Shown here in pieces: positions 31,812 through 52,758 of a stretch of 64,000 bases of DNA; within the stretch, counting starts at the first letter, position 1, and each line of letters opens with the position of its first letter. The DNA comes from Oligoflexia bacterium (GTDB lineage: Bacteria; Bdellovibrionota_C; UBA2361; JBGSMV01): contig JAIBBU010000005.1 in the NCBI GenBank assembly GCA_019694515.1, positions 62,001 through 126,000 on the forward strand. The letters are read 5' to 3'. Below the pieces are notes generated by a model. That model had not been told where the DNA came from. It did not search any database and worked only from the letters and a program-made list of their open reading frames with translations. The translations under genes and the position numbers were made by a program.

Positions 31812-33452
31812 CTAGCGAGTATTGTCTGAGGCTGCCAGATCCGCTGCAGATTTTTCAGCGGTTCTAGATGGAGCGGCCTTACTGATGGTGTCCAATGCCC
31901 GTCGCAGGGCGCGCTCCGGCACCGCGACGATTTGGGTCAGATTTTTTAGCTTCGACACAAGTTTGCTGGCGTCGACGCGCTGCACGCTCAGATTCTGCTT
32001 CTTGGCGAGCGCTACCGCCACCCCGGCGCTCTGTCCCAGAACCATGAATGTGGGCTCCATGCGCACCGAGCTAAATGCAATATGGCTACTGGAAAGCGCC
32101 ACGGGTACTAATAAATTTTCAGCCTGATCTGCTTTCGGGAGAATAGCCCGATATGGAATCTGATAAGGGGTGACGCGCTGCCAAACCCAACCTTCATGGC
32201 GCAGCGAATGATCGGAGAGTTTTAGGCGCTGCACATGATGCGCCTCAATCGGACAGGAGCCGACACCGATGGGGTCAGGCTGAATGACAGTATGGCTCAG
32301 ATCCTGCTGCCTGAGGACAAAAGCGCCAACCAGCCGGCGTGCCTCGCGCACGTAGAGCTGATATGGCCAGTTGGCATTGTCCTTAAATTCATCGGCGCAC
32401 AGTCCGCATTTTGCCAGCACCTCGCGCGCATGCCCGGGAACTGCGCGATCATGCGCCAAAAAATAGAGCAAACCCTGGGTGTAATCACGATGGCGACGGC
32501 GAATCTCCTCGCGCTGCGCTGGAGCAGCCTCCGGATACTCCCAGCTAGCTCCGATCATATTGGTAGAAAATGGTCCGCGATTATTGATGTCGAATTTGTT
32601 ACTAGGGATCTTAAGGAAGCGCAGCAGCTCGCTGAGTTTGAGGTTGTGCTTGGTGTGTAGATATTGCGCCAAAAGCAGGTAATCTTCCCGCTGATAGGAA
32701 GCAGGCGGCTCAATCTCGCGAAAGTTGCCGGCTTCGCAGCTTAAACAGACGCGATAATTATATGAAGGGAGCTTGTAATCGGCGCTCCCCAGCGCCGCCG
32801 GATCGCCGGCGTTTACATAAGGCAACAACGCCCCATCCGCGCCCAGCCCGCTCATGCGGGGCGGGAATTGGTCCCGCTCAGCAAAAGGGGCCACTCCCGC
32901 CAATGTTTCTCCGTACTCCGAGCTGGACTCCCGGCCCAACGCGTAGGAGATCCCGGCCTTTGCCATCAGATCTCCCTCATAGGAGGCATCAATAAAATAG
33001 TGCGCACTGAGCTGCGTAGATTGACCCAGCTGGACTGCGGCAATGCGCTTGCCGGCCTTCGACACCGTGTTCAACGCAACACCCAAAAACGCGGTAACTC
33101 CTGCTTCCCGCAGGTACTGATTGAAGAGCTCCTCCGCAATGTGTGGCTCTACGCGCCACTCCACACGTTTGCCGTAGCGGGCGCCGTTACGAACAAAAAA
33201 ATCCTTCGACATCCCGCCGATAACTTCTTTAATGCATTTATCGGTTCCCCCCAAACCGCTGGCCATCATTCCGCCGATGTGCCGAGTCGGCTCAACCAAT
33301 GCCACGTTTAGTCCTTCTTTCTTCGCGGCAACCGCTGCCATCACACCTGCCGGTGTGCCGCCGTAGACCAGCAGGTCATAAGTTTGGGCGGCTGCAACAG
33401 CTCGGAAGCAGGCCGCCAGGGCAAGCAAGAAGCGAAATAGGGTCCTTTGCAT
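31812..33452 (-). CDS. Exported FAD-dependent oxidoreductase
   Basis: A 546-residue protein of the FAD_oxidored family. The ATG at 33450-33452 yields a signal peptide (MQRTLFRFLLALAACFRAVA) directly before the dinucleotide fold YDLLVYGGTPAGVMAAVAAK; the open frame extends upstream but would bury the signal peptide. Further FAD-type motifs are LVEPTRHIGGMMASGLGGTD, HYFIDASYEGDLMAKAGISY and, near the end, FMVLGQSAGVAVALAKKQNL. Family members are often secreted and found with carbohydrate genes, but substrates are mostly unknown. It lies 12 nt upstream of the GT-C-like gene on the same strand. Confidence 0.8.
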   Translation of the reverse strand: MQRTLFRFLLALAACFRAVAAAQTYDLLVYGGTPAGVMAAVAAKKEGLNVALVEPTRHIGGMMASGLGGTDKCIKEVIGGMSKDFFVRNGARYGKRVEWRVEPHIAEELFNQYLREAGVTAFLGVALNTVSKAGKRIAAVQLGQSTQLSAHYFIDASYEGDLMAKAGISYALGRESSSEYGETLAGVAPFAERDQFPPRMSGLGADGALLPYVNAGDPAALGSADYKLPSYNYRVCLSCEAGNFREIEPPASYQREDYLLLAQYLHTKHNLKLSELLRFLKIPSNKFDINNRGPFSTNMIGASWEYPEAAPAQREEIRRRHRDYTQGLLYFLAHDRAVPGHAREVLAKCGLCADEFKDNANWPYQLYVREARRLVGAFVLRQQDLSHTVIQPDPIGVGSCPIEAHHVQRLKLSDHSLRHEGWVWQRVTPYQIPYRAILPKADQAENLLVPVALSSSHIAFSSVRMEPTFMVLGQSAGVAVALAKKQNLSVQRVDASKLVSKLKNLTQIVAVPERALRRALDTISKAAPSRTAEKSAADLAASDNTR

Positions 33453-33511: not shown

Positions 33512-35212
33512 TTAGGTGGATGCCTGATCGCCATCGACTTCCCGCTGGCCTCCCGGCATTGGCACCAGCTGCACGTGGCGTCGATCTATGGGCTGACGGC
33601 GAAATTGCTCCACAGCGGCGTGCAGCCATGCATCGTCAAAGCGTAGCCCGATATTAGGCAGCAACAGATGCATCACCCGCAGATCATGTGATTTTAGGAT
33701 TCTGTCCTTTACGACTGTGGGACCGTCCGGCCGGCTCATGCGATCGCCGTTAATCATGTGATAGCGCGGACCGTCGACTTCGATTGCCAGATTCGGTTCT
33801 AAAAGAAAATCCAGATGAAATCCATGCAGCTGCACTTCACTGCGCACACCGGGATATAGGCGTTGTAGCGCCAATCCGATCTGTTCTTGAGGTGCACTGT
33901 TGATCGGCTGAAAGACATAACCATCCTGCTCCTCCATATTCAGCGCGGTTACCGCCCGTAGTTCCGCGGTGCGCCGCATCAATTCAGCGGCCTGCCGCAC
34001 CAAACCACCCTCCGAGCGCGAGAAGCGCTGCGTGCTGAGCTCCGGTTTATAGTGATACCAAAGCGGGTCGAAGAGCTCGCGGTCGCCGAGATAAGCAAAC
34101 GCCCATAGGGAAGCAGCTAACGAAAACGATCGGGACCGGTCCGGCGCGCGGTCTACAAGCTGCTGCTGGATAATGCGAAAGGCCCTTCTATCAGGGGCAT
34201 TCAGCCGTGCCAGTCCGTAGCATAGATTCACCAGGTCCACGACCGACAGCTCCGCGGGATGGTTCAGGGCAGCTCGAACCAAGCCCTCGCGCAGGTTGCG
34301 CCGGTCGTGGCGTCCCTTGCCACACGCCAAAACATAATTACCAATCGCGGCCAGATTCTGCGGTTGAGCGCGCTCCTGTGGATCCATTTCAGTTAGCGCC
34401 ACGGCAGTGCGGTGGAAGATTGCGGGATAACGGGGCGGCTTCGGATTGGCACACTCCGCCAGACTTATACAGACATCTGCGAGCTGTTCTTCGGAGATGT
34501 GAGAACCGGGTTCAAGCAGCGGGTTCAAAATCAGCCTCCACAGCGCATTGCGCTGCCCAAAGTCGAGGCGCCCCGCTTCTTCACAGCTCTCCGCCCGGCT
34601 TAAAGCCCGCACAAACCAGGCAATATCACTAGAATTGGCCTCCCCCAGTTTGGCCGGGAATACCTCGCACAACCGCGCAAATAGTCCGGACTGGACCATG
34701 CGCGCGGAGGTCATCGCCATCAGTACATTGGCCAGTTCGCGCGCGCCGAAATCCTCCAATCGCTCAACCGCCGGAACAAAGAAATCACCAAGGATTTTTT
34801 TTGCCGCAACAGCAATTTCACGCTGCGGGCCCGAGGCTGTGCCATTCTCATTGCGCAAGATTGCCTCATAGGAAAGATTTCTAACTTGAAGCACAATCGT
34901 AGCTAGATTGACAGGATCCAAACGATCGGCATGCCGGCTGTAAGCTCCTAAAATTGAAAGCCGGTCAAGCACACTGCGATCAGAGTCAGCAGCCAGCGCC
35001 AAAATCTGATTGTTAAAGCGCACCACTCCTGGACCAACGATGCGCCTCCCGTTGACCACGAAATCTCTATTCCCAACACGAGAAAGCTGCTGCCTGGACA
35101 AATCAATCTCAAGCTCATCGGCTCCTTCCCGGCGCAGCTCGGCGATCTCCTTCCGCGCTGTGCGTTGAATCGATCGGATTCGATCCTCAGTATGTCGTTG
35201 TTGACGTCCCAT
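33512..35212 (-). CDS. OPR/FASTK-like helical-repeat protein with C-terminal RAP domain
   Basis: A 566-residue protein. A series of degenerate helical repeats (about 80-430) share a pattern of Leu-Ala and Leu-Ala-Arg cores: LANVLMAMTSARM, DIAWFVRALSRAES, QLADVCISLAECANP, NLAAIGNYVLACGKG, DLVNLCYGLARLNAP and LAASLWAFAYLG. The C-terminus is a RAP domain, with HLDFLLEPNLAIEVDGPRYH and VVKDRILKSHDLRVMHL. This architecture is known from eukaryotic organelle RNA-processing proteins (FASTK, OPR) and a few bacteria. The RAP fold resembles Vsr-type endonucleases. The ATG at 35212 is one option; the frame is open to 35308. An RNA-binding or RNA-cleaving role is inference. Confidence 0.7.
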   Translation of the reverse strand: MGRQQRHTEDRIRSIQRTARKEIAELRREGADELEIDLSRQQLSRVGNRDFVVNGRRIVGPGVVRFNNQILALAADSDRSVLDRLSILGAYSRHADRLDPVNLATIVLQVRNLSYEAILRNENGTASGPQREIAVAAKKILGDFFVPAVERLEDFGARELANVLMAMTSARMVQSGLFARLCEVFPAKLGEANSSDIAWFVRALSRAESCEEAGRLDFGQRNALWRLILNPLLEPGSHISEEQLADVCISLAECANPKPPRYPAIFHRTAVALTEMDPQERAQPQNLAAIGNYVLACGKGRHDRRNLREGLVRAALNHPAELSVVDLVNLCYGLARLNAPDRRAFRIIQQQLVDRAPDRSRSFSLAASLWAFAYLGDRELFDPLWYHYKPELSTQRFSRSEGGLVRQAAELMRRTAELRAVTALNMEEQDGYVFQPINSAPQEQIGLALQRLYPGVRSEVQLHGFHLDFLLEPNLAIEVDGPRYHMINGDRMSRPDGPTVVKDRILKSHDLRVMHLLLPNIGLRFDDAWLHAAVEQFRRQPIDRRHVQLVPMPGGQREVDGDQAST

Positions 35213-35436
35213 AACGCTTAATATCGGCAGACTCTGCCCTTTATCCGCGACCACGCGGTGTCTGCAGCTTAAAAGAACTGCAGCGACGAAACTACCAGAG
35301 TACCGCAATAAGATTTCTCATTCTACCGCGAAGCCAATTTTTAAGCGGTTTGATTAAGATCTCACTTGCCTGTAAAATTAAGAGGGCTTTGGAGATGGTC
35401 GTATTCGGGGCGGGGGCCTCGTTCGGGGGAAGGGGG

Positions 35437-37263
35437 ATGTTCGGTCGAGTTGTTACGCCGTGCGTGGCGTGCTGTGTGCTCTTCGCAACTGCACTTTGGG
35501 CTCAGACCCCTGAAGTTGTCGCTAATCACTATATTATTCAAACGCTCCCCGTGACAGACGGGGCCGCGCTTTCAAGTTCCACCTATCAGACTCTCAGAGA
35601 TTTTCAAAACGCGAGACTGGTCGTACCGAATCACGCTGTCGCCAGCTACGTAAACGAGGGGCAGCGCCGCCCCTATGATCCAATTATGGCCGCTCTGGAC
35701 TGCGCGCAGATCCAGCGCGACTTAACTGTTCAGAGCTGCGAACCGGATCTCATCCGCTATTTCGACGCGCAGCCCAATGACCCGTATTTCGCACAGCAAT
35801 GGTCGTTAACCGACACCGAGCTGGGCAGTAATGCGGCGGCAGGGTGGGAATTCAACACCGGATCGCCTGATACAATCGTGGCCGTAATCGATTCCGGAAT
35901 CAATTTCTTACATCCCGATCTAACTCCGAGCTTGTACGTAAATCGCAATGAGCTGCCGCGCAATGGGAAGGATGATGATGGCAACGGCTACGTCGACGAT
36001 TTCATCGGTGCTAATACTTTTTATCATGACAATAACCCATGGGATTGCGACGGACACGGCTCACATGTCTCGGGCATTATCGCCGCACAGGGCAATAACG
36101 GCTTGGGCATCGCAGGCGTTAATTGGAACTCCAGGATTCTCATGGTCAGTCCTTCTGAATGCGGCGGCTTCGGCTTCGCCACCTCAGACTCGATTGCGGC
36201 CCTCGATTACCTCTATGATCTCAAGAAGAATCGCGGGGTGAATATCCGCTTCGTAAACGCTTCCTACGGAAGTTCGCTTTACAGCGCTGCGGAATTTGCG
36301 GCGATCAAGCGCTTAGCCAGTGTCGATATTGGTCTGATAGCCGCTGCGGGAAACGGGGGCTTTGACCAAGTCGGAGATAACCTGGATCTCAAGCCGCACT
36401 ATCCTGCCTCCTATGGGCTTGAGAACATCATCGCTGTTGCCAATTTCGGCCTCGATGGCGAACTTGATGACAGCTCAAACTTCGGCCCTCATTCGGTCGA
36501 TATTGCCGCTCCCGGAAATGAAATTTTAAGCACCGTAGCCGCCGTCGGCACACTCTACGAACAGTACGACTATAAATCGGGCACTTCGATGGCGGCGCCG
36601 CATGTTACCGGGGCATTGGCGCTGCTCGTTTCGCAACGCCCGCAGCTCTCCGTAAGCCAAGCCGCAGAGCTGCTGCGCCAGTCGGCTCGTCCGCGCGCAG
36701 CTCTAGCCGGTCTCGTGCGAAGCGCCGGGACATTAGATTTGGCGGCGCTCCTTAGCAGCCCAGATCCGCTCGATCAGTGTCCAGCTGACTCGGGGAAAAT
36801 GTGGCCGGGCAGCTGTGGATGCGGTGTGATTGAAAGCTATGCCGATTCCGATCTGGATAACACTCCCGACTGTATCGATGGGTGTCCCAATAGCAGGCAA
36901 AAGAGCGCACCTGGTATCTGCGGGTGCGGTTTCTCCGACTATGATTCGAATCGCAATGGCCAGCCGGATTGTTTTGAACTGAATCTCTCAAGCTTAACTC
37001 CGCCACCACCGGTAGTGGAGCTACGGGGCCGCCGAATCCTAGTGACTCTGGCGGCACATCCTGGCGCGAAGCTGATCTTGCATCTAAAGCCGCTTTCCGA
37101 TTCCGATGCCCGCCCCAGAACCGTGATAGTGACGGGGGAACAATATCTGAGTCCGCGGCTAAAGAAGGGCAGCCGCTGGCAAATTAGCTACATTTTCAAA
37201 CAAAGCAGCCCGTCGCGGCAGCAATCGCTTGAAAGTAAGCGGCTGCGAATCAAGATTCCCTAA
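35437..37263 (+). CDS. Secreted subtilisin-like serine protease (S8) with TSP3-like repeats
   Basis: A 608-residue protease. The signal peptide is MFGRVVTPCVACCVLFATAL, ending near WAQ. The catalytic triad is in VAVIDSGINFLHPDL (Asp), CDGHGSHVSGIIAAQGNNG (His) and YKSGTSMAAPHVTGALALL (Ser), with the oxyanion Asn region AAAGNGGF. The C-terminal part has two Cys- and Asp-rich modules (CPADSGKMWPGSCGCG; DSDLDNTPDCIDGCPN) like calcium-binding thrombospondin type 3 repeats, then a beta-rich tail. It probably works outside the cell and needs calcium. The ATG at 35437 gives the cleanest signal peptide; ATG 35395 is an alternative. Confidence 0.9.
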   Translation: MFGRVVTPCVACCVLFATALWAQTPEVVANHYIIQTLPVTDGAALSSSTYQTLRDFQNARLVVPNHAVASYVNEGQRRPYDPIMAALDCAQIQRDLTVQSCEPDLIRYFDAQPNDPYFAQQWSLTDTELGSNAAAGWEFNTGSPDTIVAVIDSGINFLHPDLTPSLYVNRNELPRNGKDDDGNGYVDDFIGANTFYHDNNPWDCDGHGSHVSGIIAAQGNNGLGIAGVNWNSRILMVSPSECGGFGFATSDSIAALDYLYDLKKNRGVNIRFVNASYGSSLYSAAEFAAIKRLASVDIGLIAAAGNGGFDQVGDNLDLKPHYPASYGLENIIAVANFGLDGELDDSSNFGPHSVDIAAPGNEILSTVAAVGTLYEQYDYKSGTSMAAPHVTGALALLVSQRPQLSVSQAAELLRQSARPRAALAGLVRSAGTLDLAALLSSPDPLDQCPADSGKMWPGSCGCGVIESYADSDLDNTPDCIDGCPNSRQKSAPGICGCGFSDYDSNRNGQPDCFELNLSSLTPPPPVVELRGRRILVTLAAHPGAKLILHLKPLSDSDARPRTVIVTGEQYLSPRLKKGSRWQISYIFKQSSPSRQQSLESKRLRIKIP

Positions 37264-51867: not shown

Positions 51868-52758
51868 ATGAAGAACTTTATCCTCTGCGCTTTGACTGTA
51901 GCCCTCGCCGGCTGCTCTCCTCAAGCCAAACAGCTTGGCGCCTCATTGCTGAGCCAGACGGGCTTGGTCTCTGAAAGCCAGGCTAACACGGCCTTTAGTG
52001 TCGGCGAGAAACTGAGCAAAGCGGCCGGGCCATTAACCGAAGAACAGGAATATTATCTTGGTCGCGGCGTCTCAGCCATGATCCTGGCGCAATATCCGCT
52101 CTATCAGAATCAAGCCGTAACCAGCTATGTCAATCGCGTTGGCAACGCCGTAGCTGCCGTTTCAGACCGGCCCGAAACTTTCTCGGGTTATCACTTTGCG
52201 ATACTTGATACATCCGAGGTCAACGCAATTTCAGCTCCGGGCGGATTCGTTTTCGTTTCGCGCGGTTTTCTGCGTCAAATTCCGGATGAGGACGCGCTTG
52301 CCGCGGTCCTAGCGCACGAGGTGGGACATGTGGTTAAAGGTCACGGCGTTAACGCAATTTCTAAAGCGAACCTGACTGAAGCCTTAACCATGGTAGGCAA
52401 AGAAGCTGCCTCAAGTTACGGGGCACCAGAGGTCCAAGCCCTGACGGCCGCTTTTGGTGACAGCGTCAAAGATGTCTTCAATACCCTGATCAAGAATGGC
52501 TACAGCCGCTCGCAGGAGTACGAGGCGGATGAATATGCCGTGACGCTGCTCGGCCGCGTCGGCTACTCCCAAGGTTCATTAGTGCAGATGTTGGAGGTGC
52601 TGCAATCCGCTGGGGAGCAAAAGGGCGGCTGGTATGATACCCATCCAAGCGCGCGTAAACGCATCAGTGAGGTCAAAGACCTCGATATCGCGCTCAGCAC
52701 GAACACTCCCGGATACGAGACCCGCACTGCGCGCTATAAGAAGAACGTAAAGCTGTGA
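51868..52758 (+). CDS. M48 family metalloprotease lipoprotein
   Basis: A 296-residue lipoprotein. The lipobox is LAGC (about residues 13-16). The M48 zinc motif is in AAVLAHEVGHVVKGHGV and the third ligand region in GYSRSQEYEADEYAVTLLGR; the segment SEVNAISAPGGFVFVSRGFL is also typical. It probably works in the periplasm or on the outer membrane on misfolded envelope proteins, like BepA or YggG. It is translationally close to the SH3 protein, and its stop lies inside a 16-bp tandem repeat that ends just before the cyclase gene. Confidence 0.88.
   Translation: MKNFILCALTVALAGCSPQAKQLGASLLSQTGLVSESQANTAFSVGEKLSKAAGPLTEEQEYYLGRGVSAMILAQYPLYQNQAVTSYVNRVGNAVAAVSDRPETFSGYHFAILDTSEVNAISAPGGFVFVSRGFLRQIPDEDALAAVLAHEVGHVVKGHGVNAISKANLTEALTMVGKEAASSYGAPEVQALTAAFGDSVKDVFNTLIKNGYSRSQEYEADEYAVTLLGRVGYSQGSLVQMLEVLQSAGEQKGGWYDTHPSARKRISEVKDLDIALSTNTPGYETRTARYKKNVKL

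What the first reader, a model, noticed from the sequence alone, without database searches (positions are those of the whole stretch)
33512..35212. Bacterial OPR/FASTK-like protein ending in a RAP domain
Seen: repeated helical cores with the pattern DIAWFVRALSRAES or DLVNLCYGLARLNAP, then a C-terminal stretch with LAIEVDGPRYH and DRILKSHDLRV. Established: OPR, FASTK and RAP proteins process or stabilise organellar RNAs in eukaryotes, and few bacterial examples are known. Inference: this could act on host or self RNA, or be an acquired gene.
Basis: partly seen in the sequence, partly recalled or inferred. Interest (0 to 1): 0.7.

Follow-up and report, generated by a model that had tools for sequence, protein, structure and literature searches.

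The report
Bacterial solenoid protein with RAP-like nuclease domain
This bacterial gene encodes a chain of helical repeats ending in a nuclease-shaped domain, the same layout as proteins that process RNA in mitochondria and chloroplasts, and it belongs to a fast-evolving bacterial family that keeps the nuclease-site residues.

Summary
In detail: a 566-aa minus-strand ORF (33512-35212) contains every quoted motif. Searched alone it hits no RAP, FAST or OPR model. It is tied in by a class-wide family: 18 of 45 genomes carry members, some with up to five copies, and this genome has three. A profile built without the window protein finds it at 73.8 bits (best of 1000 shuffles 8.6); the repeats alone score 23.4 bits (shuffles 8.3, unrelated HEAT proteins about 0). 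The family profile matches trypanosome RESC6 (1e-35), algal mL115 and ASA2, and human FASTKD4 (5e-9). Two other members pass Pfam's RAP cut-off. The modelled C-terminus has a restriction-endonuclease-like fold close to Toxoplasma RAP proteins, FASTKD4 and Vsr (Z 9-11). D468, E478, D480 and H485 are invariant in the 20 aligned domains. Gene composition is native, so recent acquisition is unlikely. Best reading: a cytosolic, sequence-selective RNA-binding solenoid with a probably active Vsr-like RNase domain acting on the cell's own transcripts (inferred). Main rival: a type III-secreted effector, since the genome has two non-flagellar T3SS-like gene sets and the best-known bacterial relatives (RipS/SKWP) are effectors. 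New variant of a known kind; bacterial OPR/RAP proteins were already reported.

The parts
33512..35212 (-). Whole gene: 566-aa alpha-solenoid plus RAP/Vsr-like protein (ATG at 35212; alternative TTG start at 35308)
   Evidence: leave-one-out family profile 73.8 bits
33953..35023 (-). Helical-repeat (HPR/OPR/FAST_1-like) solenoid, residues about 64-420
   Evidence: All-helical AF2 single-sequence model, block pLDDT 58-86 over residues 71-190 but lower elsewhere; repeat-only profile 23.4 bits vs <=8.3 for shuffles; top Foldseek hits are RESC6, mitoribosomal OPR proteins, ASA2
34874..34918 (-). Repeat core 1 DPVNLATIVLQVRNL (res 99-113)
34703..34747 (-). Repeat core 2 GARELANVLMAMTSA (res 156-170)
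34592..34636 (-). Repeat core 3 NSSDIAWFVRALSRA (res 193-207)
34451..34495 (-). Repeat core 4 SEEQLADVCISLAEC (res 240-254)
34322..34366 (-). Repeat core 5 QPQNLAAIGNYVLAC (res 283-297)
34202..34246 (-). Repeat core 6 SVVDLVNLCYGLARL (res 323-337)
34085..34129 (-). Repeat core 7 SFSLAASLWAFAYLG (res 362-376)
33611..33895 (-). RAP/Vsr-like restriction-endonuclease-fold domain (res about 440-534)
   Evidence: AF2 on a 7-row alignment, pLDDT 77.9, pTM 0.71; VIA-align Z 11.2 T. gondii RAP protein, 10.8 FASTKD4, 10.8 I-Bth0305I, 9.8/9.0 Vsr
33809..33811 (-). D468, predicted metal-binding Asp in strand 2 (Vsr D51 position, by spacing)
   Evidence: invariant in 20/20 aligned domains; Vsr D51/H69 pair from PMC11879112
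33773..33781 (-). E478-V-D480, conserved ExD in strand 3
   Evidence: both acids invariant in 20/20
33758..33760 (-). H485, predicted equivalent of Vsr H69
   Evidence: invariant in 20/20
35350..37263 (+). Divergently transcribed neighbour, subtilisin-like protease by its motifs (context only)
   Evidence: sequence read
31812..33452 (-). Downstream gene about 60 bp away, FAD-dependent-oxidoreductase-like with a signal-peptide-like start (context only)
   Evidence: sequence read; this neighbour was not seen at the other family loci read

Best explanation
The gene encodes a cytosolic protein in which tandem two-helix repeats form a solenoid that holds a particular single-stranded RNA, and the C-terminal Vsr-like RAP domain, with an intact D468/E478/D480/H485 site, cuts or trims that RNA in a metal-dependent way. 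Each paralogue (three in this genome) would recognise a different transcript of the bacterium itself, as HPR, OPR and FASTK proteins do in organelles. Shown here: ORF, repeats, nuclease-like fold, conserved residues, family membership, native composition, and (in syntenic relatives) faster divergence than the neighbouring gene. Inferred: RNA as ligand, cleavage, self target.
For: Leave-one-out profile 73.8 bits, repeats alone 23.4 bits. Family profile matches RESC6 1.2e-35, mL115 1e-17, ASA2 3e-16, FASTKD4 5e-9, all organellar and mostly RNA-associated. RAP domain model Z 10.8-11.2 to FASTKD4 and a T. gondii RAP protein. D, E, D and H invariant in 20/20 domains, whereas human FASTKD4 has Asn in place of the Vsr His and appears inactive (PMC11879112); FASTKD5 is a reported in vitro nuclease (cited in PMC12871924). 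Up to five paralogues per genome, and the same chromosomal slot next to an M48 peptidase gene in several genomes. Orthologue pairs show dN well below dS, with dS saturated. No phage, viral-contig or PADLOC match for this protein or, in phages, for relative L002. No apparent N-terminal signal peptide by eye (MGRQQRHTEDRIRSIQRTARKE).
Against: No RNA-binding or cleavage data exist for this family. The window protein itself scores below all Pfam RAP/FAST/OPR thresholds. Two of 26 members (L002 and the third own-genome copy L047) have lost the acidic residues, so cleavage is not a family-wide requirement. By sequence the C-terminal domain is nearer to bacterial endonuclease-like proteins (3hrl 0.0018, I-Bth0305I 0.009) than to eukaryotic RAP (0.64). 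Patchy distribution and rapid divergence also fit an effector or defence role.
Confidence: 0.5

Rival explanations
1. [quoted passage not shown]
For: The best-known bacterial proteins with this architecture are T3SS effectors (RipS/SKWP) or sit in an intracellular bacterium (OtRAP of Orientia) (PMC7729196; PMC4617103). This genome has three FlhA/SctV and three FliP/SctR genes and two short SctJ genes beside one FliF, i.e. a flagellum plus two T3SS-like sets. Named relatives occur in Endozoicomonas, a host-associated genus. Family genes diverge faster than neighbours (31-38% vs 73-77% identity).
Against: SctJ-like T3SS genes occur in nearly all 45 genomes of the class but the family in 18, so T3SS presence does not predict it. 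The T3SS genes lie on scattered contigs away from the RAP-like genes. No secretion signal was tested. Several copies sit in stable housekeeping-type loci.
Confidence: 0.27
2. It is a DNA-acting nuclease or a single-gene defence protein whose solenoid senses a phage or plasmid component and whose Vsr-like domain cuts DNA.
For: The C-terminal domain is closest in sequence to DUF559/I-Bth0305I-type proteins; 20 of 26 members match the MTES_1575 nuclease model at E<=0.1; L004's nuclease domain weakly hits a candidate defence model, PDC-S37; fast divergence.
Against: The window protein has no PADLOC hit. The repeats match RNA-associated organellar solenoids. Loci read are beside housekeeping genes, not defence islands. 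The PADLOC hit covers only the nuclease domain of a 1550-position model.
Confidence: 0.13
3. It is a non-catalytic RNA or ribosome-assembly scaffold, like FASTKD4, ASA2 or the mitoribosomal RAP proteins, with the nuclease fold used only as a binding platform.
For: Many matched eukaryotic proteins are structural (mL115, mL116, ASA2); two family members have lost the site.
Against: D, E, D and H are invariant in 20/20 aligned domains despite about 20% overall identity, which argues for retained catalysis in this copy.
Confidence: 0.1

Closest known systems
HPR/OPR proteins with a C-terminal RAP domain (apicomplexan, algal and kinetoplastid organelles; e.g. RESC6, mL115, T. gondii mitoribosomal RAP proteins)
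   Same: Tandem two-helix repeats followed by a restriction-endonuclease-like C-terminal domain; significant profile and fold matches at family level
   Different: Bacterial and chromosomal, no organelle to target; repeat spacing 37-57 in this copy; no PPPEW motif; nuclease residues intact
FASTK family (FASTKD4, FASTKD5)
   Same: FAST_1-like repeats in relatives (L002 78.8 bits); RAP fold Z 10.8 to FASTKD4
   Different: No FAST_2 match in any member; FASTKD4 lacks the Vsr-like His and seems inactive (PMC11879112), while D468/H485 are present here
Vsr, I-Bth0305I, DUF559 and MTES_1575 endonuclease-like domains
   Same: Fold (Z 9-11) and D...ExD...H residue pattern
   Different: Attached to a repeat solenoid instead of standing alone or on a helicase; below the gathering scores of the Pfam models
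OtRAP of Orientia and RipS/SKWP effectors of Ralstonia (PMC7729196)
   Same: Bacterial proteins with repeat solenoids and, for OtRAP, a RAP domain
   Different: 37-aa repeats in L002 rather than 42-aa SKWP repeats; different lineage; secretion unproven here; not compared by sequence
DUF1601 repeat proteins (e.g. on Bradyrhizobium plasmids)
   Same: Relative L002 matches DUF1601 (4.6e-11) and Bradyrhizobium plasmid proteins
   Different: The window protein itself does not match DUF1601

Membership tests
RAP domain (PF08373) | Direct match of the protein to the Pfam model above 24.2 bits | tested here: not met
   No hit at E<=10; no PF08373 match in the genome
RAP domain (PF08373) | Homology to proteins that do pass the RAP cut-off | tested here: met
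   L004 30.3 bits, L005 31.5 bits over cut-off 24.2; window protein aligns to L004 over repeats and domain, blastp 1e-8 on a small set; leave-one-out domain profile 38.2 bits
RAP domain (PF08373) | Restriction-endonuclease-like fold close to solved RAP domains | tested here: met
   Z 11.2 T. gondii RAP protein, 10.8 FASTKD4; caveat: 4 of the 7 alignment rows were RAP-like gammaproteobacterial sequences
Vsr-like / PD-(D/E)XK endonuclease | Active-site D and H with the fold | tested here: met
   D468, E478, D480, H485 invariant in 20/20; Z 9.0-9.8 to Vsr, 10.8 to I-Bth0305I; residue equivalence by spacing, not by superposition
Vsr-like / PD-(D/E)XK endonuclease | Nuclease activity | not testable with these tools
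   needs a biochemical assay
OPR | 38-40-aa repeats with PPPEW-type motif | tested here: not met
   Steps 57, 37, 47, 43, 40, 39; no PPPEW in the sequence
HPR | Regular 37-aa two-helix repeats | tested here: inconclusive
   Relative L002 has nine motif copies exactly 37 apart; window protein irregular
FASTK family | FAST_1 + FAST_2 + RAP | tested here: not met
   FAST_1 only in relatives (8 of 26 at E<=0.1); FAST_2 in none
T3SS effector (RipS/SKWP-like) | Translocation by a T3SS | not testable with these tools
   T3SS-like genes present; translocation unknown
RNA-binding HPR/OPR/RAP protein | Binds RNA | not testable with these tools
   needs EMSA or CLIP-type data

The most novel reading that the evidence does not exclude
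A native bacterial system of sequence-addressed RNA endonucleases: solenoid proteins that each select one own transcript and cut it with an active Vsr-like RAP domain, representing the prokaryotic stock from which the organellar HPR/OPR-RAP/FASTK proteins of eukaryotes derive.
Probability: 0.1. Interest if true: 0.87.

Novelty: new variant of a known kind. Interest (0 to 1): 0.55.

Why it matters
RAP proteins are read as eukaryotic organellar RNA factors, and whether the RAP domain is a nuclease is still debated (PMC9181182, PMC11879112). A bacterial family with the same layout, clean 37-aa repeats in some members and an intact Vsr-like site offers prokaryotic proteins on which RNA recognition and RAP cleavage could be tested, and bears on where the organellar proteins came from.

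Tried and rejected
Direct Pfam, NCBIfam and PDB phmmer searches of the single protein: nothing significant. Close relatives in genome contigs and viral contigs by peptide patterns: none. Phage records: none for relative L002. Recent acquisition by composition: rejected. Simple HEAT/armadillo explanation: three HEAT-type proteins of the same genome score about 0 with the repeat profile, although the low-confidence solenoid model also resembles importins, so fold alone would not decide. T3SS co-occurrence as a test of the effector idea: T3SS genes are nearly universal in the class, so uninformative. T4SS VirB4 and T6SS VipB: not found in this genome. Alignments A3/A4 as a pattern query: too divergent for the scan. 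Promoter/terminator scan: nothing above expectation worth reporting. No eukaryote-bacterium tree was made: the domain is about 100 aa at about 20% identity and no eukaryotic set was to hand. The FASTKD5 and HPR discovery papers were not held.

Full report
Observation. Taken alone it matches nothing useful: Pfam gives only PP_kinase_N 0.046 and MTES_1575 0.091, NCBIfam only chance-level hits, PDB phmmer nothing, and a PF08373 search of its own genome is negative.

Family. Searching genomes of the same class (45 held) found distant relatives, then RAP and FAST_1 hits, and with an alignment a family in 18 of 45 genomes. Copies reach five in one genome; the window's genome has three, on contigs 17, 30 and 67. 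Proteins with the same sequence in named records are MAGs labelled uncultured delta proteobacterium (L053), Deltaproteobacteria bacterium (L054) and uncultured bacterium (L048). L002 (744 aa) has nine motif copies exactly 37 residues apart and matches FAST_1 at 78.8 bits in seven stretches, DUF6832, DUF1601 and the solved RESC6 at 3.5e-31. L004 and L005 pass the RAP cut-off. The window protein aligns with L002 (1e-11), L004 (1e-8), L003 (6e-8) and L011 (4e-6) in a small all-against-all comparison.

Statistical tie. A profile of the other members finds the window protein at 73.8 bits; the best of 1000 shuffles scores 8.6. The C-terminal domain alone scores 38.2 (shuffles 4.0), the repeat region alone 23.4 (shuffles 8.3; three HEAT-type proteins of the same genome about 0). 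The family profile hits RESC6 1.2e-35, RESC8, mL115, T. gondii RAP proteins, ASA2 and FASTKD4 (9gek, 5e-9) in the PDB.

Structure. Single-sequence AlphaFold2 gives an all-helical solenoid with block pLDDT 58-86 over residues 71-190 and lower values elsewhere, and an unresolved C-terminus (mean pLDDT 48.8). Foldseek ranks RESC6, mitoribosomal OPR proteins and ASA2 first; VIA-align puts mitoribosomal solenoid proteins (7pkt_R Z 15.3, 8a22_AO 14.7) and RESC6 (13.8) near the top, with importin-type HEAT proteins interleaved (8f19_A 14.9), so fold alone is weak here. With a 7-row alignment the C-terminal 124 residues fold with pLDDT 77.9 and pTM 0.71 as a restriction-endonuclease-like domain, matching a T. 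gondii RAP protein (Z 11.2), FASTKD4 (10.8), I-Bth0305I (10.8), Vsr (9.8, 9.0) and ASA2 (8.4). Four of the seven rows are RAP-like gammaproteobacterial sequences, so this model leans on them.

Active site. In 20 aligned domains D468, E478, D480, H485 and G497 (window numbering) never change. Vsr pairs D51 with H69 (PMC11879112); the spacing D468-H485 (17) is close to D51-H69 (18). FASTKD4 has Asn570 opposite Asp523 and appears inactive (PMC11879112), while FASTKD5 is reported as a nuclease (PMC12871924). L002 and the third own-genome copy (L047) have lost the acidic residues, so some members cannot cut this way. By sequence the domain is nearer to bacterial DUF559/I-Bth0305I proteins (0.0018, 0.009) than to eukaryotic RAP (0.64).

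Evolution. In five genomes of one genus a member sits beside the same M48 peptidase gene. Among three of these loci (L036, L037, L044) RAP-protein identity is 31-38% where the neighbour keeps 73-77%. dN is below dS in the pairs tested, but dS is saturated. The window gene's GC and codon usage are native.

Mechanism. The layout (sequence-reading solenoid plus nuclease-fold domain), cytosolic look, multiple divergent copies and intact site suggest RNA selection by the repeats and cleavage by the RAP-like domain, on the cell's own RNA. HPR proteins are reported to bind RNA and not DNA (PMC12691811). RNA as ligand, cleavage and self target are inference. The strongest rival is a secreted effector: T3SS-like genes (two SctJ, two SctV-like, two SctR-like genes beside the flagellar ones) are in the genome, and RipS/SKWP effectors share the architecture (PMC7729196). 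T3SS is nearly universal in the class, so this does not discriminate.

Verdict. A divergent bacterial member of the HPR/OPR-like solenoid plus RAP/Vsr-like domain kind. It is not filed as an OPR, FASTK or Pfam RAP protein, since defining features of each were tested and not met for this sequence. Bacterial examples were known (Orientia, Ralstonia in PMC7729196; a few in PMC8190603); the class-wide, multi-copy, site-conserving family is, as far as I could find, undescribed.

Noticed in passing
G000 contigs C32, C57, C68, C84 (L088-L092, L097-L099): The genome carries a flagellum plus two non-flagellar T3SS-like gene sets scattered over contigs; one SctV-like gene sits at the end of a Tad-pilus cluster at a contig end.
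   Followed up: partly
window 51868-52758 (+); L028, L036, L037, L044: An M48 peptidase lipoprotein in the window looks like the one that neighbours the RAP-like genes in another genus of the same order, but has no RAP-like neighbour here.
   Followed up: partly
L032 (G006): Solenoid protein with nearly identical repeats (LNPQAIGNALYGLQSLDSSIVPRKLLEALSDKV) and a RAP-like C-terminus, probably recently amplified.
   Followed up: no
L049 (Salinisphaera sp. G21_0), L051 (Endozoicomonas acroporae): Neighbouring large solenoid genes in tandem, at least one per locus ending in a RAP-like domain, in named gammaproteobacteria.
   Followed up: partly
L055 1348-4620 (G016 C45): Two RAP-like family genes in tandem, their open frames about 70 bases apart.
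   Followed up: no
L047 2806-4080: Third own-genome paralogue has the repeat region but lost the acidic nuclease residues; it lies beside two HEAT-type proteins.
   Followed up: partly
L033 (G033): A helicase-like ORF ends in the same kind of Vsr/RAP-like nuclease domain.
   Followed up: no
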